From: Paramagnetospirillum magnetotacticum MS-1
GTDB lineage: Bacteria > Pseudomonadota > Alphaproteobacteria > Rhodospirillales > Magnetospirillaceae
Reading direction: 5' to 3'
Assembly (NCBI RefSeq): GCF_000829825.1
Contig: NZ_JXSL01000030.1
Coordinates: forward strand, 131,501 to 195,500
DNA: 64,000 nt
Below, in pieces: positions 27,856 through 63,285 of the stretch; positions within the stretch are counted from its first letter, which is position 1, and each line of letters starts with the position of its first letter. The position numbers and the translations under genes were made by a program. A model generated the notes under the pieces. That model made no database searches. It worked only from the letters and a program-made list of their open reading frames with translations, and was not told where the DNA came from.

Positions 27856-27871
27856 GGCGACCTGACCAAAA

Positions 27872-34377: not shown

Positions 34378-34405
34378 TTTTCGCCATAGCCCACGATGAG
34401 GCACC

Positions 34406-34759: not shown

Positions 34760-34772
34760 GAAGGAGAAACCC

Positions 34773-35078: not shown

Positions 35079-36034
35079 TCGGTCGCGTCGGCGTATTGGC
35101 CGGGGATAACAGGTCCGGTCATGCCACACCACGAACGGTGTCGCGACATGCCCACCGGCTCCTCGTGAACCTGAACCTCTGCGCTTGGATAGGCGGCGAG
35201 GATAATGTCGATGGTTTCCTCGGTATAGCGATGGGCGTCATGTAGCGACAGGTCGGGGTTCATCTCGACATGGAGTTGTATGAAAATCTGCGGCCCCGCC
35301 GAGCGCGTGCGCAGATCATGAACCCCTTTCACTTCTGGATGGGACAGCGCCAGATCCCGGATCTTGTGCCTCTCTGCATCGGAGAGTTCACGGTCCAGAA
35401 GGATGCCGACGGATTCGCCAAGGATCGTCTTGGCGTTCAAGGCCAGATAAACCGCGACACCAAGGGCGAACGCAGAATCCACCCATGTCATTCCCGCGAG
35501 ACCGGTTAGCAATAGCGATATGATGATGCCGACATGGATTACTACGTCCGTTGTGTAATGGATCGCCTCTGCCCGCACTACAAGTGATCCGGTCAGGCGG
35601 ATCACATGCCGCTGATAAGCAAGCAACCCACCCGTCAGAACGATCACACCCGCCATGGCCCAAGCGCCCCATTCCGTATTGGCAACAGGGTGAGGGTAGC
35701 GGAGCCGATCCACGGCTTCGATGAGGATCATAATGGCGACGCCGAACAGGAAAACTGCTTCGGCCAGAGCCGCCAACGGTTCTATTTTACCGAAACCAAA
35801 CCGATGGGATCGACTGGCTGGGCTAAGTGCCTTGCGAACCGCCATGAAATTGGTCACCCCAACGCTGCAATCGAGGATCGAATCCATCAACGAGGTCAGG
35901 ACGCTCATTGAATCGGTCATGGCCCACGCTCCGATCTTCATGCCGAGCATGACGGTGCCGACAGCTAGGGCCGCAGTCGTCGCCGCCTTCTTCAGCCGAC
36001 CGACTTCTTCAGGCCCGGGAGCATAAGGTGTCAT
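35075..36034 (-). CDS. FieF-type CDF cation efflux transporter
   Basis: Cation diffusion facilitator of 319 residues, the classic iron/zinc/cadmium efflux type. Six membrane helices are expected. Metal-site pairs are seen as D-x-x-x-D in 'SLMDSILDCS' and H-x-x-x-D in 'HYTTDVVIH', the FieF arrangement. The C-terminal cytoplasmic domain has 'HPEVKGVHDLRTRSAG'. It differs from the MamB-like CDF in the same element, which has Y/D and N/D pairs. So the element carries two different CDF classes facing each other. Confidence 0.88.
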   Translation of the reverse strand: MTPYAPGPEEVGRLKKAATTAALAVGTVMLGMKIGAWAMTDSMSVLTSLMDSILDCSVGVTNFMAVRKALSPASRSHRFGFGKIEPLAALAEAVFLFGVAIMILIEAVDRLRYPHPVANTEWGAWAMAGVIVLTGGLLAYQRHVIRLTGSLVVRAEAIHYTTDVVIHVGIIISLLLTGLAGMTWVDSAFALGVAVYLALNAKTILGESVGILLDRELSDAERHKIRDLALSHPEVKGVHDLRTRSAGPQIFIQLHVEMNPDLSLHDAHRYTEETIDIILAAYPSAEVQVHEEPVGMSRHRSWCGMTGPVIPGQYADATD

Positions 36035-36118
36035 GGGGTGTGGTCCTCTGCTGTCGAAAACGCTTGGTGTACACCCTCGATTCGTACCGGCGGTTTAGTT
36101 CATTTGATATTATCACCG

Positions 36119-38137
36119 TTACCTCAGTTTACCGGGCACCAGCTTACGCTTTCTGGCACGCTCTCCGCCAAGTGTCTCGGCGCGAGGAGGGCGTGCCCTT
36201 TCTGGTTTTTCGCGCTGTGAAGTTGTCTCGGCTGAAGCCGCTTCCTCCTGATCGATCCATTCGATCTCCGTCGGAATCGTCCGGGTTGGCTGGGCTTGGC
36301 GATAGAGGTGGCTGAGATCAAGACCCTCGTATGACAATGCCTTGATGGTCGGAACCGTCTCGGCAGGTTCGAACCCGTGGAAATACACCACGTCCATCTC
36401 GTCGGTCTTCCGGTGCCCCATCACCTCGCCGACCATGAGGGGATGCGCCTTCAACTGGCGGATTAGCCTGGTCTTGAAGGTGTGGCGCAGGGAGTGGAAA
36501 TCCCGCCAGCGCTGGTACATGCCGTGCTTGGTCAGGTATTCGCGGAACCACTTGCCGAAAGCCTGGCCCGGCTTTGCCTTCGCCCGCAGATCGGGGAACA
36601 GATGAACGTGACCCTTGACCTTCATAGCGTCACGGAATTCGATCAGACCGATTCTTTCGAGCATCGGGTGGACGGGGATCTTGCGCTGGGCGGCCTTGGT
36701 CTTGCCTGCCCCACGCTCCTGGGCAACAAGGAAGAGCCAGGACTTGTTCCCCTCGTCCCAAACGATGTGGTCTACGTCCAGCATGGCGATCTCGGTCTCG
36801 CGCATGCCGGTGAACAGGCCGATGAGGGGGATCCAGAACTTGCCGTCATCGGCCAGATAGCCGTTCTCCCTTGTGGCAGACCTATTATGGGCGCTGACGC
36901 TGCCGGTCCATACGGGAAGCCTAACCATTCTGTTGAGCTCCATCGTCTCCCAGATCTCGCGGGTATTCGCTTCCACTGCCACGTCCTGCTTCGCGAACAG
37001 GACCCCAGTGAACGGATTGGTCATGGGGTAGCCGCTACGTAGAATGCGCTGGCCAAAGGCATCGCTGAAAAAGGTCAGGTGCTTGTTCACTGTCTTCTTG
37101 GACATGGGCTTGGCCCGTTCCTCCGCCTCGGCCCGTGTCATTTTCATTCCGCCAACGGTAACCACCTCTTTCGGATCGCTACCATTGCCCAGCTTTTTGA
37201 AATCCGCTGCGATGGCCTTGCGTAGTCCGATGGCCTTCGGCAAGTCGACCTCTGCATAGATGGACTTGCCATTCAGGGCCGGCAGGCTGCACAGCCACTC
37301 CCGAAAACCGAAGGCATCGGCCTTCTGAACCTGGGCGAAGGGCAAATCGCTCTTGTAGGCGAGGAACAGGCGGAGCGCCACGCGGGCCTGCTTGGCGGTG
37401 CCGCTGGTCTCCTTCCACTTCCCTTCGGCCTCCTTGGTGGCGATGTTCTTTTCGAACATCTCCGAGACCTTCTCGCGGGCGGCTTCGGCTCCGGTGCCGC
37501 CCGCGCCGATGGCAGGGGCACCGTTATTCGAGACGAAGGGATGGATCGGGGCGCGGTAGATGCCTTGTTCCCGCTCGGATTCGATGTCCAAGGCAGCGCC
37601 CACGGTGGCCATGGCCTTTCGCAGGAACAAGCGCCATTCCGCCTTGTCATGGAGCGGGCGCATCTTCCGCTCCTTCAGCATTCGCTCCACGGCGGGAATG
37701 ACAGGATCGAGGATGTTGTGCCGGAGGTGGACCCGCCAGTTCCAACCGATATCGGGATCGTTTGCAGCCTCCTGTAGCTCCTGCTCTTCTTCGGATGCAT
37801 CACCATCGATGGTCCAGGGCGAATCGCCCGATGGACGGGCGGCGCGGATGACCTCGCCGGTCTCCAGCACCTCGGTGAAAAGGTCGAGGAGGATTCGGTC
37901 GAGGTCCTGCTGGGTCGGAAGCGACAATCCGCTCATGGCACTCGCTTTCAGGTGCTGCGCCACTTCCTCTACCACCGCCGAGAGGCGGCGGGCAAGGCGG
38001 CGTGCGTGCTCAGGTTCGCGAGTGCGGAGAGATCGGGCGAAATGCGACCGCCCAAGGATCTGGCCGAGGGCAACGGGCAATCGGCAACGCCAATAATACG
38101 TCGCCTCACGACGGAACAGATGGTTGGTGTTCACCAT
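36119..38137 (-). CDS. Large tyrosine integrase with DUF6538-like N-terminus
   Basis: Integrase of 672 residues. It begins with the 'LFRREATYYWRCRLP' motif typical of DUF6538 at the N-terminus of many alphaproteobacterial integrases. The catalytic domain has Arg in 'TGMRETEIAMLD', His-x-x-Arg-type 'FHSLRHTFKTRLI', His in 'MGHRKTDEM', and Tyr in 'VYFHGF'. The C-terminal tail is basic. Its start is 149 bp from the tRNA-Gln 3' end, so it is the integrase of the 29454-38302 element. Confidence 0.9.
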   Translation of the reverse strand: MVNTNHLFRREATYYWRCRLPVALGQILGRSHFARSLRTREPEHARRLARRLSAVVEEVAQHLKASAMSGLSLPTQQDLDRILLDLFTEVLETGEVIRAARPSGDSPWTIDGDASEEEQELQEAANDPDIGWNWRVHLRHNILDPVIPAVERMLKERKMRPLHDKAEWRLFLRKAMATVGAALDIESEREQGIYRAPIHPFVSNNGAPAIGAGGTGAEAAREKVSEMFEKNIATKEAEGKWKETSGTAKQARVALRLFLAYKSDLPFAQVQKADAFGFREWLCSLPALNGKSIYAEVDLPKAIGLRKAIAADFKKLGNGSDPKEVVTVGGMKMTRAEAEERAKPMSKKTVNKHLTFFSDAFGQRILRSGYPMTNPFTGVLFAKQDVAVEANTREIWETMELNRMVRLPVWTGSVSAHNRSATRENGYLADDGKFWIPLIGLFTGMRETEIAMLDVDHIVWDEGNKSWLFLVAQERGAGKTKAAQRKIPVHPMLERIGLIEFRDAMKVKGHVHLFPDLRAKAKPGQAFGKWFREYLTKHGMYQRWRDFHSLRHTFKTRLIRQLKAHPLMVGEVMGHRKTDEMDVVYFHGFEPAETVPTIKALSYEGLDLSHLYRQAQPTRTIPTEIEWIDQEEAASAETTSQREKPERARPPRAETLGGERARKRKLVPGKLR

Positions 38138-38285
38138 TGGGCAGGCCCTTCTCTGGGCGCCGTGGCTTCGTCAAGGTGCTACACCTAGGTGTTACACTCG
38201 CCGAAAAGCCCCTGGCGCCGGTCTCGCGACGAGAGAAGAACTCGTTGGTTTCAAATGGTATTTTCCCGCCTTGAAGGGCGGGAAA

Positions 38286-38359
38286 TGGCTGGGGGACTAG
38301 GATTCGAACCTAGACTGGCGGAGTCAGAGTCCGCTGTCCTACCGTTAGACGATCCCCCA
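38286..38359 (-). tRNA. tRNA-Gln (anticodon CTG)
   Basis: Reads on the minus strand as a full cloverleaf. The acceptor stem TGGGGGA/TCCCCCA is perfect. The anticodon stem GCGGA/TCCGC has loop CTCTGAC (anticodon CTG), and the T-arm contains TTCGAAT. The discriminator is G, as usual for glutamine, and CCA is encoded. The 3' 17 bp are duplicated at 29454, the mark of island insertion. Confidence 0.95.
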
Positions 38360-38450
38360 CCAGTCTGGCTGGTGGTCGTTCGAGGCCCCCTAAAGCGGGG
38401 GGTGACCACGAGAGGCGCACCTTCTAACACAGGCTCCCGGCGGGATCAAC

Positions 38451-47175: not shown

Positions 47176-48522
47176 ATGAAGGTTCTGTTCAGCAATCCCC
47201 CGTGGTGGGGCGAAAAAGCCCTCTACCCCATGCCCGACGGCAGCCAGAAGCTGGTGCACCGCGCTGGCGTGCGCGCCGGGTCGCGATGGCCGTTCACCTT
47301 CTTCATGGGCAACGGCCCCGACGACTATCAGTTCGGCTCCTACCTGCCCTATCCCTATTTCCTGGGCCATGCCGCCACCTGGGCCAACCGCGAATTGGGC
47401 GGCAACGTCCAATTCCGCGATTCCATCGCGCTCCGGGAATCCTACGACAAGTACTACGAATTCCTGGATGCCGAGCGCTTCTCCCATATCGTCATCGAAT
47501 CCGCCTCGCCCAGTTGGGAACATGACAAGGGGGTGATCGGCGAGATCGCGCGGCGCCTGCCCCATACGCGCTTCATCATCACCGGCCCCATCACCTCGCA
47601 CGGCGAGGCGCTGCTGGACGAAGCCCCGAACATCCAGGCCACCGTGCGCGGCGAATACGAAAAAGGCGTCATCAAGGCGCTGAACGGGGCCAACGGCGTG
47701 GTGGATTTCGATCTGCTGACCGTGGCCGAGATGAATTCGGCCCCCTTCCCCTATTTCGACAGCGTCATCGCGCACCGCTATTGCGACACCAATCCGCGTG
47801 GTCAGCAATTCCCCCACGCCCAGGTGCTGTCCAGCCGCGGCTGCCCCTACAAATGCATCTTCTGCGTGTGGCCGGCGACCATGACCTCCAACGATCCGGA
47901 CGGCGGCGGCAAGCGCATCGTGCGCCAGTACGGAGCCGACTATATGGAGGCCTTCCTGACCGAGCTGGTGCAGAAATACGGCTTCCGCTCCATCTATTTC
48001 GACGACGACACGTTCAACCTGGGCGATCGCCACGTCGAGAAAATGTGCGCGGTGATGCGCAAGGTGGGCGTGCCGTGGTCGGCCATGTGCCGGGCCGACA
48101 CCTCCAGCTTCCATCTGTGGCAGGAAATGAAGGACAGCGGCTGCTTCGGGGTCAAGATCGGCTTTGAAAGCGGCAACCAGGAGGTGGTCGACAACATCGT
48201 CAACAAACGCCTTGATCTGGAAGAGGCCCGCAAGGTCGCCTTCGAAATCAAGCGCGTCGGCATGACGCTGCACGGCACCTTCACCTTCGGCCTGCCCGGC
48301 GAGACGCCCGAGCAGATGCAAGACACCGAAAACTACATGGCCACCCTGCCGCTGGACTCCTGCCAGAAATCCGGCTGCGCCGAGATCGAGGGCGCGCCCC
48401 TTCACACCCTGGGCCGCGTCTCCAATCTCAAGTCCTATCCGGGCGCAAAAATGGACGAAAACTACAGCCGCGAAACCGACGGCCAGATGAAATACGAGAA
48501 GATGAGATCCATACAGGCTTGA
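47176..48522 (+). CDS. B12-binding-type radical SAM enzyme
   Basis: Protein of 448 residues with 'C-x3-C-x2-C' in 'RGCPYKCIFCVWP' near residue 226, which ligates the 4Fe-4S cluster. An N-terminal Rossmann-like region ('LFSNPPWWGEKAL ... HIVIESASP') resembles cobalamin-binding domains of BchE/HpnJ-type enzymes. Such enzymes do C-methylations and ring rearrangements on lipids, sugars or cofactors. It follows the glycosyltransferase by 15 bp, so it may tailor the same glycan. Confidence 0.85.
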   Translation: MKVLFSNPPWWGEKALYPMPDGSQKLVHRAGVRAGSRWPFTFFMGNGPDDYQFGSYLPYPYFLGHAATWANRELGGNVQFRDSIALRESYDKYYEFLDAERFSHIVIESASPSWEHDKGVIGEIARRLPHTRFIITGPITSHGEALLDEAPNIQATVRGEYEKGVIKALNGANGVVDFDLLTVAEMNSAPFPYFDSVIAHRYCDTNPRGQQFPHAQVLSSRGCPYKCIFCVWPATMTSNDPDGGGKRIVRQYGADYMEAFLTELVQKYGFRSIYFDDDTFNLGDRHVEKMCAVMRKVGVPWSAMCRADTSSFHLWQEMKDSGCFGVKIGFESGNQEVVDNIVNKRLDLEEARKVAFEIKRVGMTLHGTFTFGLPGETPEQMQDTENYMATLPLDSCQKSGCAEIEGAPLHTLGRVSNLKSYPGAKMDENYSRETDGQMKYEKMRSIQA

Positions 48523-48748
48523 CCCGACATACTCCCATCCAGGCCCCGGCTGCGGCAGGCAAAAAGTATATGCGCCTGTTTCGCAGCTGGCGGAATCCCG
48601 CAGATTTCAACGAGATCGGCTGAATCCATTAGCCACAAATTCGTTGCGTCCGGGCCTGCATTTTGGTAGTTAATTAACCTGAGTGGCAATATGTTTTAAG
48701 CGAGCGAGCGTCCGAAGCGGCGCGTAAATCTCCAGAAAGGGGGTAGCC
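48523..48748. other. Leader region of the giant repeat gene
   Basis: 226 bp without a gene. It contains GTTAATTAAC (a perfect palindrome near 48669-48678) and ends with AAAGGGGG, the ribosome site for the GTG at 48749. No terminator was found after the radical SAM gene, so read-through into the repeat gene is possible. Confidence 0.5.
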
Positions 48749-51700
48749 GTGGTTTCTTCAGTCACATTCCAGTCGGCCGCTGCGATCGCAGCACTGACGA
48801 CGACGAACATCGCGGCGTGGGACACCACGGACATCGCAGCGCTGGTCTCCACCCAGCTGCAAGCGCTGACCGTCACCCAGATCCAGGCCCTGGAAACCAC
48901 CGACATTGCGGCACTGAGCACCACCCAGCTCAGTGTGCTGAGTTCGACTCAGGTCGCGGCCTTCGACAATACCCAGATCGTGTTCAGCGCAGCCCAGCTC
49001 GGCGTTCTCAACGCCTCGCAGCTTGGCGCCTTCTCGACCTCGGACATTGCCGCCATCACCAGCACGGCCATCAGCGGCCTGACCACCACTCAGATCGGCA
49101 GCCTGGCCAACACCCTGCTGAATTCCATCGACACCACCGACGTCGCTCTGCTCAGCACCACTCAGCTTTCCGTTCTCAAGACCTCGCAGCTCGCCGCTCT
49201 CTCGACCACCAACATCAACGCGCTCTCCACCACCTCTCTCGCTGGATTGAGCGCGGCCCAGGTGGCCGGATTGACCACCACCCAGGTGGCCGGACTGACC
49301 ACCACCCAGACGGCCGCCCTGGCCACCACCGAACTGAACGGCCTGTCCACCACCCAGCTCAACAGCCTGACCACCACCAATCTGGCGGCCCTGACCACCA
49401 CCCAGCTGTCCGGCATTTCCGCGGCCCAGGTATCCGCCCTGTCCACCTCGACGCTGAACGCCCTGTCGACCACCGGACTGGCGGGCCTGACCAGCACCCA
49501 GACCAACAGCCTGACCTCCACCCAGGTCGGCGGCCTGACCACCACCAATCTGAACGCGCTGGAAACCACCGATCTGGCCGCGCTGTCGTCGACCGCCCTC
49601 ACCGGCCTGACCACAACTCAGACGGGAGCTTTGACCACCACCTCGGTCTCGGCCCTGACCACCACCGAGGTCGGCGCCCTGACGGTGACCCTGCTGAACT
49701 CGTTGACCACCACCAATGTGGCGACGCTGACCTCGACTCAGATCACCGGGCTGAATTCCGCGCTTTTGGCCGGTCTGACCACTTCCAATCTGGCATCGCT
49801 GGCCACCACCACGCTGGCCTCGATCACCACCTTGCAGCTGCGCGGCCTGACCACAACCCAGGCGGGAGCTCTGAGTTCCACCCAGGTGACCAATCTGACC
49901 TCCACCCAGGTGGGGGCTTTGGCCGCTTCGGCCATCAACTCGCTGACCACCACGTCGCTGAACACCCTGTCCACCACTCAGCTCAGCAGCATCACCACCA
50001 GCACCCTGAGCAGCCTCAACACCACCACGCTCAACGCGCTGCGGACCACCAGCATCGCCGGCCTGACCACCGGCCAGGTGCGCGGCCTGACCGAGACCCA
50101 GATCGGCGGCCTGACCACCACCCAGATCAACGCCTTCGAAACCACCGATATCGCGGCGCTGTCCACCACTCAGACGGCCACGCTGACCACCACCCAACTG
50201 GCGGCGTTGAACTCCACCAATGCCAGCGCCCTGACCGTCACCGAAATCAAGTCCCTGTCCGCCCAGCAGTTGTCCGCCCTGGCCACCACGGCGGCGGCCG
50301 AACTGTCCACCACCCAGGTGGGTGCCTTCACCAGCGTTCAGCTTCAGGGTCTGTCCACCACCACATTCAACGCTCTGTCCACCACCGCCGTGGCGGGCAT
50401 TTCCGCGACCCAGGCCCAGAGTCTGTCTTCGACCCTGCTGGCCGGGCTGACCACCACCACCCTGGGCGCCATCGAATCCACCGATCTGGCCGCCGTCACC
50501 ACCACCGCGCTGAATTCCCTGACCACCACCAATGTGGCGCAGCTGACCAGCACCCAGCTGGCGGGCCTCAAGGCCAGCCAGGTCTCGGGCCTCACCACCA
50601 CCAAGCTCAACGCGCTGACCACCACCAATGTGGCCGAGTTGCTCGTCACCCAGATCAAGGCGCTGACCACGGCGCAGGTGTCGGGGCTTTCCACCACCCA
50701 GCTCAACGCGTTCGAGACCACGGATTTCGCCACTCTGAGCGCCGCCCAGGTCAGTTCCTTGACCACCACCCAGGTGGCCGGACTGACCACCGCCCTGGTG
50801 GATACCCTGACCATCACCGAGGCCAAGGCGCTTTCCACCACCCAGCTGAACGCCCTGACCACCACCAATGCCGCCGAGCTGTCCACCACCCAGGTGGGGG
50901 CCCTGTCCACGGCCCAGGTGTCCGGCCTCAGCACCACCAATCTCAATTCCTTGTCCACGACCTCGCTGGCGGGCCTGTCGGCCACCCAGGTCAAGTCGCT
51001 GTCCACCACCCAGATCGGCGGGCTTTCCACCACGCAGGTTGACGCGCTGGAATCTGGGGACCTGGCGAACCTGACGGCGACACAGCTCAACGCGCTGTCG
51101 ACCACCAATGTGGCCGAACTGTCGACCACCCAGATCGACGCCCTGACCAAGACCCAGGTGGCGGGCCTGTCCACTACGGTGTTGAACGCCCTGGACACCA
51201 CCGATCTGGCCGAACTCTCGGTCACTCAGGTGCGTTCGCTGACCAGCGCCCAGGTTTCGGGCCTGTCCACCACCCAGCTCAATGCCCTGGAGACCACCGA
51301 CGTCGCCGCCCTGCTCGGCACTCAGGTTTCCGGTCTGACCACGACCCAGGTCTCCAGCCTGACCACCACCCAGGTGAGCAGCCTGTCCAGTTCCGTGGTG
51401 CGCGCCCTGACCGCCACCCAGTTCAATGCCCTGACCACCACCACCCTGGCTCAGTTGACCACGACCCAGGCCACCGCGCTGACCACCACCCAGGTCACCG
51501 GTCTGTCCACCACGGCATTGAACACGCTGAACACCACCACCTTGGCCTCGCTCACCGCGACCCAGGCCAAGAGCCTGACCACCACCCAGGTGGCCGCGCT
51601 CACCACCACTCAGGCGGTGGCTCTGTCCACCACCGAGCTGGCGGCGCTGACCGCCACGACCGTCAATTCGCTGACCACCACCAATACGGCGCTGCTGACC

Positions 51701-54700
51701 ACCGCCCAGATCGACGCCCTGACCAAGACTCAGGTCACCGGACTGGCGACCACCACCCTGAATGCGCTGACCACCACCAATATCGCCGAGCTGTCCACCG
51801 CCCAGGTGCGCTCGCTGACCGCCACCCAGATCGGCGGCCTGACCACCACCAAGATCAACGCCTTCGAGACCACCGATCTGGCGGCCCTGACCGCCGATCA
51901 GGTCGCGGGCCTGACCACCACCCAGATCGCTGCGCTGACCACCACCCAGGTGAGCGCGCTGACCACGGCCGAGGCCAAGGTCCTTACCTCTACCCAGCTG
52001 AACGCGCTGACCACCACCAATGTGGCGACGCTGACCACCACCCAGGTCAGTGGCCTGACCACCAATCAGGTCGCCAATCTCAGCACCACCAACCTCAATG
52101 CCCTGTCGACCACCGCCCTGGCCGGGCTTAACGCCACCCAGGCCACGAGTCTGACCACCACCCAGGCCGCCGCCCTGACCACCACCGCGCTGGGCGCCCT
52201 GGAAACCACCGACCTGTCCAAGCTGTCGGCCACGACGCTGAACGCGCTGACCACCACCAATGTGGCGGCATTGTCCACCACCCAGGTGGCCGGGCTGAGC
52301 AACACTCAGGTGGCGGGTCTGTCCACCACCCAGCTGAACGCTCTCGAGACCACCGACGTGGCGGCGCTGTCCACCGCCCAGGTGCGCAATCTGAACGCCA
52401 CCCAGGTGGCGGGCCTGTCCACGACCCAGCTGAATGCTTTCGAGACCACCGATATCGCGGCCCTGACCGCGACCCAGGCGACCAATCTGACCACCACGCA
52501 GGTGGGCGCATTGACCACCACTTCGGTGGACAATCTGGGCACCGCCCAGATCAAGGCCCTGTCGGTGACCCAGTTCAACGCCCTGTCGACCACCAGCGCG
52601 GCAGAACTGACCACCACGCAGCTCAGCTCGCTGACCCACCACCCAGGTGAGTTCGCTGTCCACCACCAACCTGAATGCGCTGTCGACCACCGCCGTGGCG
52701 GGCTTCAGCGTTACCCAGGCCAAGACTCTGACCACCACCCAGGTGGGGGCGTTGACCACCACCCAGGCGACGTCGCTGTCCACGGCGGAATTGGGCGCGC
52801 TGAACGCCACCGTGTTCAACGCCCTGTCCACCACCAATGTGGCGGCGCTGTCGACCACCCAGCAGAGCGGCCTGTCGGCCACCGTGGTCAGCGGCCTCGG
52901 CACCACCACGCTGAACGCGCTCGACACCACTGGCATCGCGGCACTGACCACCTCCCAGGTGCGTAACCTGACCGCCACCCAGATCGCGGGCCTGACCACC
53001 ACCACGGTCAATGCGCTTGAGACCACCGATATCGCGGCGCTGACCGCGACCCAGGTCACGGGCTTCACCACCACCCAGATCGCCGCACTCACCACCACCA
53101 ACGCGGCGGCGCTCTCCACCGCCGAGATCAGCGCGCTGACCTCGACCCAGCTGAACGCGCTGACCACCACCGACTCGGCGGCGCTGACCAGCACCCAGGT
53201 GGGCAGCCTGACCTCCGCCCAGCTGGGCGCCCTGTCGACCACCAATCTGAATGCCCTGGCCAGCACCGGCATCGCGGTCCTGAACCGCACCCAGGCCCAG
53301 AGTCTGACCACCACTCAGGCGGCGGCCCTGACCACCACGGCCACCAACGCCCTGTCCAGCACCAGCATCGCGGGCGTCAGCGCCACCTTGCTGAACGCGC
53401 TGACCACCACCAATGCCAACGCCCTGTCCAGCACTCAGGTTTCGTCGCTGACCGTCACCCAGGTTTCGGGCCTGTCGACGTCCAACCTCAATGCGCTGAC
53501 CACCACCAACGTGGCGACCCTGACCACGACCCAGGTCAAGAACCTGACCACGGCCCAGGTGGGCGGCCTGACCACCACCCAGGTCAACGCTCTCGAAACC
53601 ACCGATATCTCGGTGCTGACCACCAGTCAGGCCGCGGCGGTCACCACGACCCAGTTGGCCGCGCTGAACTCGACCAACGCCGCGGCGCTGACCACGACGG
53701 CTCTGCGCACCCTGACCGCCACACAGTTGAACGCGCTGTCGACCACCGATGCCGGGTCGCTGACCACCACCCAGGTGTCGTCGCTGACCACCGCTCAGGT
53801 TGCCGGGCTGTCGACCACCAACCTGAACGCCCTGACCACTTCGGCCATCGGCGAACTGAGCTCCACTCAGGCCCAGAGCCTGACCACCACCCAGACCGCG
53901 GCTCTGACCACCACCCAGTTGGGGGCCCTGCAGACCACCGATCTGGCGGCGGTCACCGCGACCTCGTTGAACGCGCTGACCACCACCAATGTGGCGGCCC
54001 TGACCACCACCCAGGCGTCCAGCCTGTCCACCGCCCAGGTCTCTGGCCTGAGCACCACGGTTCTGAACGCCCTGACCACCACCGATGTGGCGGCCCTGAC
54101 CACCACCCAGGTGCGGAGTCTGACCGCGACCCAGATCGGCGGCCTGACCACCACCAAGATCAACGCCCTGGAAACCACCGATCTGGCGGCCCTGACCTCG
54201 GTCCAGGTCGGCGGCTTCACCACCACCCAGTCGGCGGCCCTGGCCACCACCGCGGTGACGGAGTTGACCTCGGCGGAGGTGGGCGCCCTGTCGACCAGCA
54301 ACCTGAACGCCCTGACCACCACCAATACGGCCTTGCTGTCGACCACCCAGGCTGGCGCGCTGAGTTCGGTGACTGTCGGCGGTCTGTCGACCACCAATCT
54401 GAACAGCCTGTCCACCACCACCCTGGCGGGCCTCACCGCCACCCAGTTGCGTGGCCTGACCACCACCCAGACCGGCGCGCTGACCACCACGGCGGCGGCG
54501 GCCCTGAATTCCGCGGTCATCACCATCCTGACCGCGACCCAGCTCAATGCGCTGTCGACCACCAGCCTGGCGGGCCTGACCAGCACCCAGGTGGCCAGCT
54601 TCAGCACCACCCAGGTCAGCGGCCTGAACACCACCACGCTGAACGCCCTGGAAACCACGGATGTTGCGTCGCTCACCACGACCCAGGTCCGGAGTCTGAC

Positions 54701-57700
54701 CACCGCCCAGATCGCTGGCCTCAGCACCACCAATCTGAACGCCTTTGTGACCACCGACGTGGCCGCGCTGACCTCGGCCCAGGTGGCGGCCTTCACCACC
54801 ACGCAGGCCAATGCGCTGACCACCACCGGCGTGGGCGCCCTGACCTCCACCGAAGTGGCGTCGCTCTCCACGTCCCAGATCAACGCGCTGACCACCACCA
54901 ATGTGGCGACGCTGACCACCACCCAGTTGTCCGCCGTCGCCTCCGCGACCGTGGGCGGCCTCAGCACCACCGCTCTCAACGCCCTGGCAACCACGGCCAT
55001 CGCTGGCCTGTCGTCCACCCAGGTGTCGGGCGTGACCTCGACCCAGTCCGCCGGCCTCAACACCACCGCGCTGGGCGCCATCGAGACCACCGATCTGCGC
55101 GCCATCACCGCGACCGCGTTGAACGCCCTGACCACCACCAATGTGGCGGCGCTGTCGACCACCCAGGTGGACAGCCTGACCACCACTCAGGTGTCCTCGC
55201 TGAACACCACCACGCTGAACGCCCTGGAAACCACCGACGTCGCGGCGCTGAATACCACCCAGGTGCGCAACCTGACGGCGGGTCAGATCTCCGGCTTGAC
55301 CACCACCCAGGTCAATGCCTTCGAGACCACGGATATCGGTGCGCTGACGGCGACGCAGGTCACCAACCTGACCTCCACGCAGACGGGGGCGTTGAACACC
55401 ACCGCGCTGTCGGGCATCACCTCGACCCAGGTCAACGCGCTGTCGACCACCCAGGTCAACGCACTGTCGACCACCAATGCCGCGGCCCTGTCCACCGCCC
55501 AGGCAGACGGCTTGTCCGCCAATCAGATCGGCGGTCTGACCACCACCTTGATCAACGCTCTGGCCACCACCACCCTGGGCAGCCTGAGCTCGAGCCAGGC
55601 GGCGGGCCTGACCACCACCCAGGCGGCGGGTCTGACCACCACCTCGGTCACCCAGCTGACCACCACCGAGCTGTCTGGCATCAACGCCACAGTGCTGAAC
55701 GCGCTGACCACCACCGGCGTGGCCAATCTGTCGACCACCCAGGTCGGCCAGTTGACCGCGACCCAGGTCTCCGGTCTCGCCACCACCGCGCTGAACGCCC
55801 TGACCACCACCGACGTCGCGTCGCTGTCCACCACCCAGGCCCGGAGTCTGACCACGGACCAGGTGGCCGGGTTGACCACCACCCAGGTGAACAACCTCAG
55901 CACCACCGATCTCGGCGCCCTGACCAACGCCCAGGTCACCAGCCTGACCACCACCCAGACCGGGGCCCTGAACACCACGGCGCTGTCTGGCATCACCTCG
56001 ACCGGCATCAACCAGCTGTCGACCACCCAGTTGAACGCGCTGACCACCACCAATGCGGCGGCGCTGTCCACCACCCAGTTGGATGGCCTGAGCGCCAACC
56101 AGTTGGGCGGCCTGACCTCGACGACCTTGAATGCCCTGTCCACCACGGGTCTGGACAGCCTGTCCTCGACCCAGGCGGCTGGCATCACCTCGACGCAGTC
56201 CGCGCTTCTGACCACCACCGCGCTGGGCGCCATCGGGACGACCGATCTGCGGGCCATCTCGGCCACGGTGCTGAACAGCCTGACCACCACCAATGTGGCG
56301 GCGCTGTCCACCACCCAGGTCAGCAGCCTGACCACCACCCAGGTGTCCGGCCTCGACACCACGCAGTTGAACGCCCTCGAGACCACCGACGTGGCGTCGC
56401 TGACCACCACCCAGGCGCGTGCACTGACCACGGCCCAGGTCGCGGCCCTGAACACCACCCAGGTCAACAACCTGTCGACCACGGATGTGGGCGCCCTGAC
56501 CAATACCCAGGTCAGCAACCTCACCACCACGCAGACCGGGGCTCTGACCACCACCGCGCTGTCGGGCATCACCTCGACCCAGGTGGGCGCCCTGTCCACT
56601 ACCCAGCTGAATGCGCTGTCGACCACCGACTCGGCGGCTTTGAGCACCACGCAGCTGACCGGCCTGACCGCCACCCAGTTCGGCGGCCTGTCCACCACCA
56701 CGCTGAACGCCCTGTCCACCACCGGCGTGGCCAGCCTGTCCTCGACCCAGGTGGCTGGCATCAGCACCACTCAGGCCGCGGCCCTGACCACCACCCAGGT
56801 CACCGCCATCGAAACCACGGATCTGCGCGCTCTGACCGCCACCGTGCTGAACGCTCTGACCACCACCAATGTGGCGGCGCTGACCACTACCCAGGTTGAC
56901 TCCCTGACCACCACCCAGGTGTCGGGCCTCTCCACCACGCAGCTGAATGCCTTGGAGACCACCGATGTGGCCGTGCTCAGCACGACCCAGGTCCGGAGTC
57001 TGACCACGACCCAGGTCTCGGCGCTGAACACCACCCAGGTCAACGCCCTGACCACCACCGATGTCAGCGCTCTGACCACCACGCAGGTCGGCAGCATCAC
57101 GACCACCCAGACCGGCGGCCTGAACACCACCGCTCTGTCGGGCATCACCTCGACCGAGGTGAACGCGCTGTCGACCAGCCAGATCAACGCGCTGAGCACC
57201 ACCAACGCGGCGGCACTGACGGCCACCCAGATCAGCGGCCTGACCACCACTGTGGTCGCGGGCCTCAACACCACCACCTTGAACGCGCTGTCCACCACGG
57301 GCGTGGCAAGTCTGTCCTCGACCCAGGCGGCCGCCATCACCAGCACCCAGTCGGCAGCCCTGACCACCACCCAGCTCGGCGCCCTCGAGACCACCGATCT
57401 GGCGGCCGTCAGCACCACGGCTCTGAACACCCTCAGCACCACCAATGTGGCGGCGCTGTCCACCACCCAGGTGAGCAGCCTGGCGGTCGGCCAGGTGTCG
57501 GGCCTCGACACCACCCAGCTGAACGCCCTGGAAACCACGGATGTGGCGTCTCTGACCACCACTCAGGCGCGCTCGCTGACCACTACCCAGATCGGCGGAC
57601 TGACCTCGACCCAGGTCAACAACCTGTCGACCACCGATGTGGCGTCTCTGACCACCACTCAGCTCACCGGCGTGACCACCACCCAGGTGTCCAAGCTGAC

Positions 57701-60700
57701 CTCGACCCAGCTCGGCGCTCTGACCACCACCCAGGTGGCGTCGCTGGCGGCCACCCAGGTGGATGCGCTGTCGACCACCAATATCGCGGCCCTGTCCACC
57801 ACCCAGATCGGCGCCCTGACCACCGGTCAGGTCGGCTCGGTCGCCACCACCACCCTGAACGCCCTCGAAACGACCGATGTGGCGGTGCTGTCCACCACCC
57901 AGGTCCGCAGCCTGACCACCACCCAGATCGGCGGACTGACCAGCGTCCAGGTCAACAACCTGTCGACCACCGATATCGCGGCTCTGACCACCACCCAGGT
58001 GACGGGCGTGACCACCACCCAGGTCGGCGCCCTGAACACCACCGCGCTGTCGGGCATCACCTCGACCGAGATCAACGCGCTGTCCACCACCCAGGTGAAC
58101 GCGCTGTCGACCACCAATGCGGCGGCCCTGACCGCGACGCAGCTTGACGGCCTGACCACCACTCAGGTGGGCAACCTCAGCACCACCAACCTGAACGCCC
58201 TGTCCACCACGGGCGTGGCAAGCCTGAGCGCCACCCAGGCGGGGGCCATCACCTCGACCCAGACGGCGGCTCTGAGCACCACTCAGCTGACCAACCTGAC
58301 CACCACCGAGGTCAGCGGGCTGACGGCAACCGCCATCAACTCGCTGTCCACCACCGATGTGGCGGCCATCTCCACCACCCAGTTGAGCGCGCTGACCACC
58401 ACCCAGGTGAGCAACCTCAGCACCACCACGCTGAACGCCCTGACCACCACCGATGTGGCGGCCATCTCCACCACCCAGGTGCGCTCGCTGACCACCACCC
58501 AGATCGCCGGGCTGACCAGCGTCCAGGTCAACAACCTGTCGACCACCGATATCGCGGCGCTGACCACCACCCAGGTGTCCGGCGTGACCACCACCCAGGT
58601 CGGCGCCCTGAACACCACCGCGCTGTCGGGCATCACCTCCACCGAGGTGAACGCGCTGACCACCACCCAGGTCAACGCGCTGACCACCACCAACGCGGCG
58701 GCCCTGTCGGCCACCCAGATCGATGGCCTGACCACCGCCCATGTGGCCGGTCTCAGCACCACCAATCTGAACGCCCTGTCCACCACCGGCGTGGCAAGCC
58801 TGAACTCGACCCAGGTCGCGGCCCTGCTCACCACTCAGATCGCGGCCCTGTCCACCACCCAGCTGGGTGCGGTCGAGACCACCGATCTGACGGCCCTGGC
58901 CGCCACCCAGGTGGATGCGCTGTCGACCACCAATATCGCGGCCCTGTCCACCACCCAGGTGGGCGCCCTGACCACCGCTCAGGTCGGCACCCTGGCCACC
59001 ACCACCCTGAACGCTCTGGAAACCACCGATGTGGCGGTCCTGTCGACCACCCAGGTGCGCTCGCTGACCACCACCCAGGTGGACGGGCTGACCAGTGTCA
59101 AGATCAACGCCCTGTCGACCACCGACATCGCGGCTCTGACCACCACCCAGGTCACCGCCGTCACCAGCACCAACGTCGCCGCCCTGACCACCACCTCGGT
59201 CTCGGCCATCACCTCCACCGAGGTGAGCGCGCTCTCGACGACCCAGATCAACGCGCTGACCACCACCAACGTGGCCACGTTGACCACCACCCAGTTGGAT
59301 GGCCTGACCTCCACCAACGTGTCTGATCTGACCACCACCGTTCTCAACGCCCTGTCGACCACGGGCGTGGACAGCCTGAACGCCACTCAGATCGCGGCTT
59401 TGACCTCGACCCAGACGGCCGGTATCACCTCCGTCAAGCTGGGCGCCCTCAACACCACCGAGGTGGCGGCCCTGTCCGCGACCGCGGTCAACGGCCTGAC
59501 CACCACCAATGTGGCGGCTCTGACCACCACCCAGGTTGGCGCCCTGACCACCACCCAGATCAGCGGCCTCAGCACCACCACGCTGAACGCGCTTGAAACC
59601 ACCGACCTGGCGACCCTGTCCACCACCCAGGCCCGCGCCCTGACCACCACTCAGATCGCCGGTCTGACCAGCGTCCAGGTCAACAACCTGTCGACCACCG
59701 ATATCGCGGCCCTGACCACCACCCAGGTGACGGGCGTGACCACGACCCAGGTCGGCGCACTGAACACCACCGCTCTGTCGGGCATCACCTCGACCGAGAT
59801 CAACGCGCTGACCACCACCCAGGTTAACGCGCTGACCACCACCAACGCGGCGGCCCTGTCGGCCACTCAGATCGATGGCCTGACCACCGCCCATGTGGCC
59901 GGTCTCAGCACCACCAATCTGAACGCCCTGTCCACCACCGGCGTGGCAAGCCTGAACTCGACCCAGGTCGCGGCCCTGCTCACCACCCAGATCGCGGCCC
60001 TGACCAGCACCCAGCTGGGTGCGGTCGAGACCACCGATCTGGCGGCCCTGTCCGCCACCCAGGTGGACTCGCTGTCGACCACCAATATCGCGGCCCTGTC
60101 CACCACCCAGGTGGGCGCCCTGACCACCGCTCAGGTCGGCACCCTGGCCACCACCACCCTGAACGCCCTGGAAACCACCGATGTGGCGGTCCTGTCGACC
60201 ACCCAGGTGCGCTCGCTGACCACCACCCAGATCGCCGGACTGACCAGCGTCAAGGTCAACGCCCTGTCGACCACCGACATCGGCGCACTGACCACCACCC
60301 AGGTGTCCGGCGTCACCACCACCCAGGTCGGCGCCCTCACCACCACGGCGCTGTCGGGCATCACGTCCACCGAGGTGAACGCGCTGACCACCACCCAGGT
60401 CAACGCGCTGACCACCACCAATGCGGCCGCGCTGTCGACCACCCAGGTGTCGGGTCTGACCACCGCCCAGGTGGCCGCTCTCAGCACCACCAACCTGAAC
60501 GCCCTGTCCACCACCAGTGTGGCTGGCCTCAACTCGACCCAGTTGGGCGCTCTGCTCACCACCCAGATCGCGGCGCTGACCACCACCCAGCTGGGGGCGG
60601 TCGAAACCACCGATCTGGACGCACTGGCCGCCACCCAGGTGGATGCGCTGTCGACCACCAATATCGCGGCCCTGTCCACCACCCAGGTGTCCAGCCTGAC

Positions 60701-63062
60701 CACGACTCAGATCAGCACCCTGGCGACCGCCACGCTGAACGCCCTGGAAACCACCGATGTGGCGGCGCTGTCGACCACCCAGGCCCGCTCGCTGACCACC
60801 ACCCAGATCGGCGGACTGACCAGCGTCCAGGTCAACAACCTGTCGACCACCGGTATCGGCTCTCTGACCAACACTCAGGTCGGCGGCATCACCACCACCC
60901 AGGTCGGCGCCCTGAACACCACCGCGCTGTCGGGCATCACCTCGACCGAGGTGAACGCGCTGACCACCACCCAGGTCAACGCGCTGTCCACCACCAACGC
61001 GGCGGCCCTGTCCACCACTCAGCTGTCGGGCCTCACCGTCACTCAGGTGTCCGCTCTCAGCACCACCAACCTGAACGCTCTGTCCACCACCGGCGTGGCA
61101 AGCCTCAGCTCGACCCAGATCGGCGCCCTGCTGACCACCCAGATCGCGGCTCTGACCACCACTCAGCTCGGTGCGGTTGAAACCACGGATCTGGAAGCCC
61201 TCAGCGCCACCCAGGTGAACGCGCTGTCGACCACCAATCTGGCGGCACTGTCCACCACCCAGGTCGGCGCCCTGAGCACCACCCAGGTGAGCGGTCTCAA
61301 CACGACCACGCTGAACGCCCTCGAGACCACCGACGTGGCGATCCTGTCGACCACCCAGGTGCGCTCGCTGACCACCACTCAGGTGGGCGGTCTGACCAGC
61401 GTCCAGGTCAATGCGCTGTCGACCACCGACATCGCGGCCCTGTCCACCACCCAGATCACCGGCCTGACCACCACCCAGGCGGCTGGCCTCAACACCACGG
61501 CTCTGGGCGCCCTGACCACCACCGAGGTGGGCGGCCTGACCGCGACTCAGATCAACGCCCTGACCACCACCAACGCGGCGGCGCTGTCGACCACTCAGCT
61601 GTCCGCTCTCAGCACCACCCAGGTCGCCGGTCTGGCCACCACCACTGTGAACGCCCTGTCGACCACCAATGTGGCCGCGCTGTCGACCACCCAGGCTTCG
61701 GCGCTGACCACCACCCAGACGGCGGGTCTCACCACCACCCAGCAGGCGGTCATCGAGAGCACCGATCTGGCGGCCATCTCCGCCACGTCCCTCAACGCTC
61801 TGACGACCACCAATGTGGCGGCACTGACCACCACTCAGGCCAGCAGCCTGACCACCACCCAGCTCGTCAGCCTCAACACCACGACGCTGAACGCCCTGTC
61901 CACCACTGGCTTGGGCTCGCTGACCACCACCCAGGTGACCAGCCTGACCACCACCCAGGTGGTCGGCCTCAACACCACCACGGTGAACGCCCTGTCCACC
62001 ACGGACATCGCGGGTCTGACCACCACCCAGGTCCAGAGCTTCTCCACCACACAGGTGGCTGGCCTCAACACCACGGCCCTGGGCGCCATCGAGACCACCG
62101 ATCTGGATGCGCTCTCGGCCACGCAGTTGAACGCCCTGACCACCACCAACACGGCCGCGCTGTCCACCACCCAGGTGAGCAGCCTGACCACCACCCAGCT
62201 GTCCGGCCTCAGCACCACCAAGCTGAACGCGCTGGAGACCACCGATCTGGCGACCCTCTCGGTCACCCAGGTGCAGAGCCTGACCTCCACCCAGATCAGC
62301 GGCATCACCACCTCTCAGATCAACGCCCTCAACACCACCGACCTGGCGTCGCTCACCGCCACGCAGATCGATGGCCTGACCACGACCCAGACGGCGGCGA
62401 TCACCACCACCAATCTGGCCTTCCTGACCTCGACCGAGGTGGGCGCGCTGTCCACGTCCAACCTCAACGCCCTGACCACCACCCAGGTGGCGGTCATCAG
62501 CACCACCCAGGTGTCCGGTCTGACCACCACCCAGATCAGCGGTCTGAGCACGACCCAGATCAACACGCTGAACACCACGGATATCGGCGCGCTGACCTCC
62601 ACCCAGGTGAGCGGCATCAGCAACGCCCAGGCAACGGCCCTGACCACCACGACCCTGGGGGCGCTGACCGCCACCGAGATCGGCGGCCTGACCACCACGG
62701 CGGTGAACGCGCTGACCACCGCCAATATCGCGGCTCTGACCACCACCCAGATCGGCGGATTGGTGACGACCCAGATCGGTGGCCTGACCACCACCGCCCT
62801 GGCCGCCATCGAGAGCACCGATATCGGCATCCTCACCACCACCCAGTTCGGGGCCCTGACCTCGACCTCCATCGCGGCACTGGTCACCACCCAGGTTACG
62901 GGTCTGACCGAAACCCAGTTGGGGGCTCTGAGCACTACCCAGCTGACCGGTTTGGAAACCACGGATATCGGTGTCCTGAACACGACCCAGGCCGCCGCCC
63001 TCGGTCCGCTGGCTGGCAACATGACCACGACCCAAAACAACGCTTGGGCCGCCAGGCTCTAA
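48749..63062 (+). CDS. Giant threonine-rich octapeptide-repeat protein (frame-interrupted)
   Basis: About 4,770 residues if one base is removed; as read, frame 1 runs 48749-52966 and frame 2 52647-63062. Nearly all of it is an octapeptide [I/V/L]-x-x-L-[T/S]-T-T-[Q/N/D], about 590 copies. Typical strings are 'VAALTTTQ', 'LNALETTD' and 'VSGLSTTQ'. There is no Cys, few charged residues, no membrane segment and no clear signal peptide. The strict 8-residue beat, regular Leu/Val and Thr-Thr turns suggest an elongated beta-solenoid-like fibre. GTG start follows AAAGGGGG. Possible roles: surface layer, adhesin, ice- or mineral-binding fibre. Function unknown. Glycan genes lie on both sides. Confidence 0.85.
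49454..62462 (+). repeat. 576-bp (24-octapeptide) higher-order tandem repeat
   Basis: The codons for 'LNAL' in the marker octapeptide recur at 49454, 50030, 50606, 51182, 51758, 52334, then 52911 through 57519, and 57855 through 61887. Every interval is exactly 576 bp except two: 577 bp across 52334-52911 (an inserted base) and 336 bp at 57519-57855 (14 octapeptides; ten lost). The 24-bp and 576-bp periods imply growth by unequal recombination of large blocks. Confidence 0.92.
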
Positions 63063-63070
63063 TCCCTGCG

Positions 63071-63098
63071 ACGAGCCGTCCCCCACGGGACGGCTCGT
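63071..63098. terminator. Terminator hairpin after the giant repeat gene
   Basis: Perfect 12-bp stem (ACGAGCCGTCCC / GGGACGGCTCGT) with a 4-nt loop, nine bases after the stop, followed by TCCC. Marks the transcript end. The remaining bases to 63285 hold no gene. Confidence 0.85.
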
Positions 63099-63285
63099 TC
63101 CCAGCCCCGGTCATTTCCACGCCTCAACCGGCGGCGGCGTGCAGCGTCTCGGCCTTTGGTCCGCCTCCGCAGGCCAAGTCGGGACAAGCATCAATCCGTT
63201 AACCATTGTCCGGTCATTATGGGCGGCGTACCGCTCGAAGTGACCGTTCGAGCGGGTTATGGCCCAACCGGAAACGGGACGCTCG

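What the first reader, a model, noticed from the sequence alone, without database searches (positions are those of the whole stretch)
48749..63062. Giant protein of about 590 Thr-rich octapeptides with no recognised family
The whole 14.3-kb coding region is an [I/V/L]-x-x-L-[T/S]-T-T-[Q/N/D] octapeptide. It is not a pentapeptide repeat, RTX, hemagglutinin or LRR motif. With 24 octapeptides per higher unit, a solenoid of three 8-residue faces per turn would give eight turns per unit. Regular Thr-Thr-Gln rows could form a flat Thr-lined face, as in ice- or mineral-binding proteins.
Basis: partly seen in the sequence, partly recalled or inferred. Interest (0 to 1): 0.9.

Follow-up and report, generated by a model that had tools for sequence, protein, structure and literature searches.

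The report
Giant octapeptide-repeat helical screw protein
A relative of magnetotactic bacteria carries a giant threonine-rich protein built from about 590 eight-residue repeats that is predicted to coil into a long screw of tiny helices, and the genes beside it and beside its relatives suggest that a dedicated sugar-adding enzyme decorates it before it is exported.

Summary
The repeat is real: 593 octapeptides over window 48749-63062, with a 24-octad (192-aa) higher unit. Two claims fail. It is not one open frame: the frame changes once near 52.6 kb, while close relatives have unbroken 4,396-4,593-aa frames. And it has a family, Pfam PF20080 'ALTTAQ repeat', on which I found no paper. AlphaFold2 on 22 of the window's own stretches gives short alpha-helices, about one per octad, and no strand (pLDDT 91): a helical screw, not a beta-solenoid. 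A periodicity of about 3.43 octads occurs in 20 of 20 homologues; 24 octads would be seven turns, not eight. New lead: two TPR-Glyco_transf_41 (OGT-like) genes follow directly. A GT41 gene lies within about 5 kb of an ALTTAQ gene in 20 of 23 positive genomes searched, and within 3 kb in 30 of 71 testable named loci; 56 of 59 GT41s from ALTTAQ loci fall on one side of a tree branch. Type I secretion genes flank 17 of 76 named loci. Most likely: a giant rod, O-glycosylated on Thr/Ser in the cytoplasm and exported to the surface. Glycosylation, export and function are inferred, not shown.

The parts
48749..52610 (+). 5' part of the giant ALTTAQ-repeat gene (ORF A frame), GTG start; ends at the frame change near 52.6 kb (approximate end)
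   Evidence: (PF20080 E 5e-182, 44 stretches)
52647..63062 (+). 3' part of the giant ALTTAQ-repeat gene (ORF B frame, from its first GTG), stop at 63062
   Evidence: (PF20080 E 0, 118 stretches)
52610..52660 (+). stretch in which the reading frame changes, inside a repeat; relatives have unbroken frames
48962..48982 (+). seven-residue 'short octad' about 72 residues from the N-terminus, followed by FSxxQL; such a unit near the N-terminus is present in 16 of 20 homologous frames (absent in G232, G328, G033; G013 lacks its N-terminus)
   Evidence: N-terminal model pLDDT 82.5
56688..57407 (+). stretch modelled (240 aa, 30 octads): 29 helices, 28 of them 4-6 residues long, the last 11 residues; no strands
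   Evidence: alignment A1
48666..48685 (+). upstream block with TTAATTAACC, unchanged in that motif in six closely related loci: likely promoter or regulator site
48734..48751 (+). Shine-Dalgarno-like AGAAAGGGGG and GTG start, identical in six closely related loci
63069..63102 (+). strong hairpin just after the stop codon, also seen in the five other closely related loci compared (G010 by eye); terminator or attenuator without a U-run, or mRNA end protector
   Evidence: (-28.1 kcal/mol, z -4.86)
63187..63208 (+). conserved AGCATCAATCCGTTAACCATTG ahead of the first GT41 gene (one base differs in G008); CGTTAACCATTG occurs once in the genome
63259..64000 (+). start of the first TPR-Glyco_transf_41 gene (682 aa, runs past the window to G000:C30:196807); a second, 687-aa GT41 gene overlaps its end (G000:C30:196804-198867)
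   Evidence: (PF13844 E 3.8e-83 and 2.1e-87)
47176..48522 (+). radical SAM gene directly upstream, found beside the giant gene in four related loci too (one only partly held); link to the system uncertain

Best explanation
The gene encodes a giant (about 4,770-residue) Thr/Ser-rich rod of the ALTTAQ-repeat family. Each octad [L]-[T/S]-T-T-[Q/N/D]-[V/I/L]-x-[A/G] is one short helix: position 2 is the N-cap, positions 3-5 the first helical turn, and positions 1, 6 and 8 probably the core. Octads wind into a screw of about 3.43 octads (27 residues) per turn, so the 24-octad higher unit is seven whole turns. The two TPR-GT41 enzymes encoded just downstream bind the rod in the cytoplasm through their TPR part and put sugars on its Thr/Ser rows. 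The rod is then exported without an N-terminal signal peptide through a type I (ABC/HlyD) system and forms a long glycan-covered fibre or coat on the cell surface, probably for attachment or shielding. Shown here: repeat, family, predicted helical model, sequence periodicity, GT41 linkage with a GT41 branch of its own, and type I secretion linkage in some relatives. Inferred: the 3D pitch, that the rod is the substrate, the sugar, export of this copy, and the surface function.
For: Family: PF20080. Fold: AF2 pLDDT 91.0 / pTM 0.83 from 22 own stretches, 29 helices, no strand; N-terminal model 82.5. Periodicity 3.39-3.45 octads in 20 of 20 homologous proteins, each above the largest of 60 octad shuffles; top peak in 18, second to 4.80 in G010 and G013. 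Two further facts fit whole turns: the 248-aa repeat of G260 is 31 octads = 9.04 turns, and the 112-aa steps are 4.08 turns. GT41 linkage: 20 of 23 ALTTAQ-positive genomes searched (of 25 positive) have a GT41 gene within about 5 kb of an ALTTAQ gene. In the named scan 22 of 64 testable genes have a GT41 within 3 kb on the 3' side, 22 of 22 on the same strand, median gap 77 bp (measured to the opening of the frame, so true gaps are larger); on the 5' side 10 of 62; either side 30 of 71 loci. Flanks hold 47 GT41 hits, some cut, in 773 kb, against one weak hit (133 bits) in 20 control stretches, 398 kb. GT41 tree: 59 rows from ALTTAQ loci against 15 others need 2 changes, shuffled mean 13.8, 0 of 500 as low; 56 of 59 lie on one side of a branch. 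The first enzyme aligns along the OGT catalytic part (7yeh E 3e-91). Type I secretion genes in 17 of 76 named loci (16 with both ABC and HlyD, 12 also with GT41), 0 of 20 controls. Thr is commoner beside GT41 (n=40) than elsewhere (n=29) at octad positions 4 (0.652 vs 0.510, p 0.008) and 2 (0.481 vs 0.415, p 0.006), uncorrected. Of 14 control genomes one has PF20080, Caulobacter vibrioides, and it is one of two with GT41.
Against: No glycan, donor or export was measured. Half of the named loci show no GT41: 38 of 76 hold one anywhere in the piece held, and many pieces are cut. G099 has none in the 19 kb read, G054 none listed on its ALTTAQ contigs (lists are capped), G199 no GT41 at all. Neither of the own genome's two paralogues has a GT41 neighbour in the stretches read, and its four type I HlyD genes are not near the giant gene. 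Thr at octad position 3, the other frequent Thr site, does not differ (0.515 versus 0.508); these tests ignore relatedness. Three Magnetococcales GT41s fall outside the main branch. The repeat family is patchy: same-genus G001, G004, G006 and G015 lack it. The copy in this window is split by a frame change.
Confidence: 0.55

Rival explanations
1. The GT41 genes sit beside ALTTAQ genes but act on something else (flagellin, as FlmG does in Caulobacter, or other cytoplasmic proteins); the repeat protein is not glycosylated and the linkage reflects a shared surface-structure gene region.
For: FlmG, a TPR plus GT-B enzyme, modifies flagellins in Caulobacter (PMC7591256, passages seen); flagellin-like ORFs (my reading of the sequence, no family search) lie within 8 kb in 3 loci.
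Against: The gap is short (median 77 bp to the opening of the frame) and 22 of 22 three-prime neighbours are co-oriented. GT41s of ALTTAQ loci fall on one side of a branch, apart from other GT41s of the same genomes, with three exceptions. Flagellin-like neighbours are rare.
Confidence: 0.2
2. An unglycosylated intracellular rod or scaffold: the screw works as a peptide- or protein-binding alpha-solenoid, like armadillo repeats, inside the cell.
For: The model's best structural look-alikes include mesothelin, a phage receptor-binding protein and armadillo proteins, though Z is at most 6.5, within the range the tool calls common; no signal peptide is visible at the N-terminus (by eye).
Against: Type I secretion genes beside 17 of 76 relatives and 0 of 20 controls. 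Octad positions 2-5 are mostly Thr, Ser and Gln throughout, with little of the variety expected of a peptide-binding groove.
Confidence: 0.15
3. One reading: a three-faced beta-solenoid with a flat Thr face that binds ice or mineral.
For: Thr-Thr-Gln rows recur regularly; some carriers belong to magnetotactic groups (named hits in Paramagnetospirillum and Magnetococcales).
Against: No strand in either model; period 3.43, not 3; carriers also include Roseomonas, Hyphomicrobium, Caulobacter, Azospirillum and Gallionella.
Confidence: 0.04
4. The copy in this genome is a freshly broken gene without function, or the frame change is a sequencing or assembly error in a 36-contig draft.
For: One frame change near 52.6 kb; unbroken frames in relatives.
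Against: Over 10 kb of stop-free frame after the break, an octad register kept across it, and a conserved start and upstream block mean that any break is recent. This bears on this copy, not on the family.
Confidence: 0.06

Closest known systems
Pfam PF20080, ALTTAQ repeat
   Same: Same octad and same 38-residue profile; hits far above the curated cut-off. The window protein is a member.
   Different: Pfam names a repeat only. In the held papers the word ALTTAQ occurs in none, and neither HeliScrew nor PF20080 in any (the one hit was for the string 9zem, in an unrelated rice paper). The screw periodicity, the GT41 partner and the secretion link are not part of the name.
HeliScrew4 (PDB 9zem)
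   Same: Best PDB sequence match, E 8e-12 and 2.5e-12; built of octads such as ALTPEQIA. The name fits the helical screw predicted here.
   Different: 120 residues, E/K/P-rich, probably a designed protein (judged from its name and sequence; no paper found). It was not among the rows shown in the fold searches.
FlmG and flagellins of Caulobacter crescentus (PMC7591256)
   Same: A cytoplasmic TPR plus GT-B O-glycosyltransferase whose TPR part binds an export substrate that is modified before secretion (passages seen).
   Different: The substrate is flagellin, exported by the flagellar apparatus, and the sugar is pseudaminic acid. FlmG itself was not placed in my tree. The window's partners lie beside a repeat protein.
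HMW1A/HMW1C adhesin glycosylation, and serine-rich repeat adhesins with GtfAB (recalled)
   Same: A giant surface adhesin glycosylated in the cytoplasm by a dedicated enzyme encoded next door; HMW1C is GT41 (recalled).
   Different: HMW1A is N-glycosylated, a beta-helix and uses two-partner secretion; serine-rich repeats use accessory Sec (recalled). Here: alpha-helical octads, OGT-like GT41 with TPR, type I secretion genes in some relatives.
Mesothelin-type short-helix superhelix (8cx3)
   Same: Best Foldseek PDB hit, E 4e-4.
   Different: TM-score 0.33 and 13% identity. A look-alike at most.

Membership tests
PF20080 ALTTAQ repeat | Score above the curated cut-off (26.4 bits), repeated stretches | tested here: met
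   589.7 and 1580.7 bits, 44 and 118 stretches
PF13844 GT41 / OGT-like enzyme (the downstream partner) | GT41 domain above cut-off with N-terminal TPR | tested here: met
   280 and 294 bits (cut-off 25) plus TPR hits in both genes
PF13844 GT41 / OGT-like enzyme (the downstream partner) | Catalytic and nucleotide-binding residues kept (His of HPTSH, Lys of FNxxxKI, HTT motif; their role is recalled) | tested here: met
   Aligned letters in 7yeh and 5a01: H, K and HTT present in the first GT41; the second gene was not checked residue by residue
GT41 substrate | Carries O-linked sugar | not testable with these tools
   Needs mass spectrometry
Type I secretion substrate | Gene beside ABC/HlyD exporter genes | tested here: inconclusive
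   17 of 76 named loci, but not this gene: own HlyD genes over the cut-off lie on C9, C27, C5 and C30:458 kb
Type I secretion substrate | C-terminal uncleaved export signal | not testable with these tools
   Tail that departs from the repeat seen (LGPLAGNMTTTQNNAWAARL), no predictor at hand
Beta-solenoid ice-binding protein | Beta strands in a regular coil with a flat Thr face | tested here: not met
   No strands in two predicted models
Leucine-rich repeat (PF23952 LRR_EndoS) | Score above cut-off and a strand-turn-helix repeat of 20-30 residues (recalled) | tested here: not met
   Score above cut-off (50.9 and 56.9 against 27.9), but the repeat is 8 residues and the model has no strand: I take it as a look-alike match
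RTX repeat | Gly/Asp-rich nonapeptides, RTX Pfam hit | tested here: not met
   No such family; period 8, Asp 2.1%

The most novel reading that the evidence does not exclude
ALTTAQ proteins, a branch of OGT-like TPR-GT41 enzymes of their own and type I exporters form an undescribed secretion-glycosylation system, spread over at least Alpha- and Betaproteobacteria and Magnetococcales, that builds very long sugar-coated alpha-helical screws on the cell surface; the enzyme reads the screw's fixed pitch, which is why duplication units are whole numbers of turns.
Probability: 0.45. Interest if true: 0.82.

Novelty: new variant of a known kind. Interest (0 to 1): 0.68.

Why it matters
If right, it gives a function and a partner enzyme to a widespread giant repeat family for which I found only a Pfam name, and it gives natural substrates to bacterial OGT-like GT41 enzymes, most of which have none known (recalled). 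The octad screw, with one short helix per eight residues and about 27 residues per turn, would be among the simplest alpha-helical repeat folds and a natural counterpart of HeliScrew4. A linear substrate with more than a thousand near-identical Thr sites would make it possible to test how a TPR glycosyltransferase walks along a protein.

Tried and rejected
Beta-solenoid, pentapeptide, RTX and haemagglutinin readings: no Pfam, NCBIfam or model support. PF23952 LRR_EndoS, CAAP1, DUF4351 and Phage_TAC_7 scored above their cut-offs for ORF A, and PF23952 for ORF B; I take them as chance matches of a low-complexity repeat. The LRR chains in the PDB sequence search (E 4e-6 and weaker) likewise. PHROG 15773 (unknown function, E 1e-31) may hold the same kind of octad; not followed.

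I first took the superhelix to be 4.8 octads per turn, because 24/5 also peaks. It was dropped as the main period because paralogues without a strong 24-unit peak at 3.4 and because the 31-octad unit of G260 fits 3.43 and not 4.8. The 4.8 peak equals one half minus 7/24 in frequency, as an odd/even alternation would give; I did not show that this is the cause. Coordinates of the models were not available, so the turn was never measured in 3D. Helix length in the model also peaks at 3.4 octads (power at 24/7 reached by 0.012 of 2000 shuffles), but its maximum over all periods is below the 95% null. The 20 proteins are related, so they are not 20 independent tests. Both models also hold longer helices where confidence drops: 227-237 in the first, 112-125 and 152-166 in the second.

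Fold searches gave no clear relative: Foldseek PDB TM 0.33, VIA Z at most 6.5, viral TM 0.30-0.35 for the two best.

Limits of the linkage counts. The GT41, HlyD and ABC profiles were built here from linked examples, so they favour such genes. The 47 GT41 hits use a threshold of 100 bits and include cut genes. Control stretches were 20 places that I chose at spaced round coordinates in five genomes, not a random draw. The named scan keeps the best 80 of 102 stretches (76 loci); 74 had an ALTTAQ frame of at least 1200 bases and 71 were testable. Related organisms are not independent. In the genome count, 'within about 5 kb' was read from capped tables plus the loci fetched; G012 and G022, also positive, were left out. 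In the octad spectrum, G199 (L038) and G009 (L048) were missed by my length and composition filter. In the tree, 'from ALTTAQ loci' means anywhere in the piece held, up to about 10 kb away; only frames over 400 bits entered; of 20 stretches fetched for other GT41s, 15 gave rows, L129, L136, L141 and L146 gave none, and L145 was dropped because it repeats a neighbouring gene of G035; L042, L045, L047 and L048 were dropped as duplicates, as. The tree is a quick one with SH-aLRT only, midpoint root, and five rows have long branches. In one search eight positions were tested without correction, and genes with a GT41 3-5 kb away counted as not near.

Literature: ten searches of the open PMC library, listings only except passages of PMC7591256. 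Nothing on ALTTAQ, on HeliScrew, or on a GT41 enzyme with an octapeptide protein; subscription journals are mostly not held and bioRxiv preprints not held.


Full report
WHAT IS THERE. Window 48749-63062 on the + strand is an eight-residue repeat throughout. The two frame segments together hold 4770 residues (1327 Thr, 476 Ser) and parse into 593 octads with two slips, one near each end. Lag-8 identity is 0.415 against 0.148 after shuffling; lag 192 gives 0.635 and is the largest of all lags to 799. Copies of a 24-octad unit recur at 192-residue steps, with one 384-residue gap and two 112-residue steps. Differences between copies are fewest at second and most at third codon positions of the + frame, so the large antisense ORFs are shadows of the repeat.

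CORRECTIONS. The region is not one frame: ORF A and ORF B lie in different frames and the repeat passes from one to the other near 52.6 kb without losing octad register. Same-genus genomes G008, G010 and G016 carry unbroken frames of 4396, 4593 and 4593 aa. Whether the change is real or an error in this 36-contig draft is open. The repeat does have a family: PF20080, ALTTAQ repeat. The own genome has two more members, about 1.5 kaa at C30:565-570 kb and 2.8 kaa at C20:53-62 kb. The family is patchy: 20 of 60 relatives and 6 of 289 genomes of the class hold it, and four same-genus genomes lack it.

FOLD. AlphaFold2 on window 56688-57407, with 22 in-register stretches of the window itself as alignment, gives mean pLDDT 91.0 and pTM 0.83: 29 helices for 30 octads, 28 of 4-6 residues and a last one of 11, no strand. 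The N-terminal 167 residues with 12 homologues give 82.5 and mostly the same pattern, with two longer helices where confidence falls. The helix spans octad positions 3 to 7 or 8, which puts position 2 (Thr, Ser, Asn, Glu or Asp) at the N-cap and Q/D/N/E at N3: the classical capping box (recalled). The best PDB sequence match is HeliScrew4, 9zem (E 8e-12). Fold searches gave only weak look-alikes: mesothelin, a phage receptor-binding protein and armadillo proteins.

PITCH. Octad-by-octad residue use oscillates with a period of 3.39-3.45 octads in 20 of 20 homologous proteins, each above the largest of 60 octad shuffles. In 18 it is the top peak; in G010 and G013 a 4.80 peak is slightly higher. 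Proteins without a strong higher unit (own C20, own C30b, G099, G232b, G033) show it too, so it does not come only from the 24-octad duplication. At 24/7 octads per turn the 24-octad unit is 7.0 turns, the 31-octad unit of G260 9.04 turns, and the 14-octad steps in the window 4.08 turns. I infer a superhelix of about 27 residues per turn whose duplications keep whole turns. No 3D measurement was possible, and the proteins are related.

N-TERMINUS. Many homologues begin like [MV]VSS[VI]S.. (by eye), and 16 of 20 frames hold one seven-residue unit 60-130 residues from the opening of the frame, in the window followed by FSAAQL. G232, G328 and G033 lack it and G013 lacks its N-terminus. No signal peptide is visible (by eye).

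PARTNER ENZYMES. From window 63259, 196 bases after the stop, come two overlapping genes of 682 and 687 aa with TPR and Glyco_transf_41. The first matches solved O-GlcNAc transferases (E 3e-91 to 2e-79, XcOGT among them) and, less well, 5djs and SPINDLY; the His, Lys and HTT positions that I recall as catalytic or nucleotide-binding are present. Of 25 ALTTAQ-positive genomes I searched 23 for GT41: 20 have a GT41 within about 5 kb of an ALTTAQ gene; G099 has none in the 19 kb read, G054 none listed on its ALTTAQ contigs, and G199 no GT41 at all. In 76 named loci from one scan, 38 hold a GT41 hit. Of 64 genes with a testable 3' side, 22 have one within 3 kb, 22 of 22 co-oriented, median gap 77 bp to the opening of the frame; of 62 testable 5' sides 10 have one; either side, 30 of 71 loci, from Rhodospirillales, Hyphomicrobiales, Hyphomonadales, Acetobacterales, Caulobacterales, Burkholderiales, Rhodocyclales, Nitrosomonadales and Magnetococcales, plus three without an order name. 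Twenty control stretches (398 kb) gave one weak hit. In a tree of 59 GT41 domains from ALTTAQ loci and 15 others, the label needs 2 changes (shuffled mean 13.8; 0 of 500 as low); 56 of 59 lie on one side of a branch with SH-aLRT 96, and the three exceptions are Magnetococcales. So a GT41 branch goes with ALTTAQ genes.

EXPORT. HlyB-like ABC genes (TIGR01846, below its cut-off in the four tested) and HlyD genes (TIGR01843, above its cut-off in the three tested) flank 17 of 76 named loci, 16 with both genes, 12 also with GT41; controls 0 of 20. For the window gene itself no exporter is adjacent; the own genome's four HlyD genes above cut-off lie elsewhere. Export of this copy is therefore an inference from relatives.

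CIS ELEMENTS. Six closely related loci share a nearly unchanged upstream block with TTAATTAACC and an identical SD and start. After the stop lies a hairpin of -28.1 kcal/mol (z -4.86), also seen in the five other loci compared, in G010 by eye. CGTTAACCATTG precedes the GT41 gene, with one base different in G008, and occurs once in the own genome. The hairpin plus a separate conserved block suggests that an abundant substrate and a scarce enzyme are expressed at different levels (inference). TTAACC resembles a CtrA half-site (recalled, untested).

MECHANISM. Best reading: translation of a giant rod, TPR-guided O-glycosylation on Thr/Ser in the cytoplasm, type I export, surface fibre. The substrate relation rests on linkage and an enzyme branch of its own. 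Thr is commoner beside GT41 (n=40) than elsewhere (n=29) at octad positions 4 (0.652 vs 0.510, p 0.008) and 2 (0.481 vs 0.415, p 0.006), not at position 3 (0.515 vs 0.508, p 0.74); eight positions tested, relatedness ignored. Precedents by analogy are FlmG and flagellin (PMC7591256, passages only) and HMW1A/HMW1C (recalled).

NOVELTY. The repeat is a named Pfam family. What I did not find in print is its screw periodicity, its GT41 partner branch and its exporter. I rate it a new variant of a known kind: a giant surface protein glycosylated in the cytoplasm before export.

Noticed in passing
window 22000-38400: Stretches of lower G+C (about 0.49-0.57 at 22-29 kb and 33-36 kb, with 30-33 kb at 0.65-0.67) ending in a tyrosine-integrase gene with DUF6538 (36119-38137, -) beside tRNA-Gln (38286-38359): looks like an integrated genomic island. 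Ten of its ORFs scanned against PADLOC gave only three weak matches in two ORFs.
   Followed up: partly
window 63069-63102: Very strong hairpin just after the stop codon, present in six closely related loci, with the stem changed on both sides in L051 (by eye); no T-run follows, so not a textbook terminator.
   Followed up: partly
window 48666-48685 and 63187-63208: Conserved TTAACC-containing blocks ahead of both the giant gene and the GT41 gene in closely related loci; possible CtrA half-sites (recalled), i.e. cell-cycle control.
   Followed up: partly
L110, L114, L085, L098, L125, L120, L068, L075, L092: A sub-type of octad with Thr at position 3 but less often at position 4, mostly in betaproteobacteria (two are Nitrospirillum); the GT41s of L110, L114, L085 and L098 lie outside the tree's 43-row group.
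   Followed up: no
L104, L088 (records titled Candidatus Marinimicrobia) and L087 (Rhodospirillaceae): Their GT41 genes lie close together on the tree, so the MAG label may be wrong or the cluster was transferred recently.
   Followed up: no
G000:C30:214000-218500 (L130): A further GT41 gene (617-aa frame) about 17 kb past the pair, in a separate branch with counterparts in G008, G010 and G016; similar in size to FlmG.
   Followed up: no
L009:4729-6828 (downstream of the window): Chemoreceptor with 4HB sensor, HAMP, MCP signalling and a C-terminal hemerythrin domain, next after the GT41 pair.
   Followed up: no
G000:C20:48000-67000 (L011): The 2.8-kaa paralogue lies between glycosyltransferase and asparagine-synthase genes on one side and IspA, GlmS-like and GlmU-like genes on the other.
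   Followed up: no
   Followed up: partly
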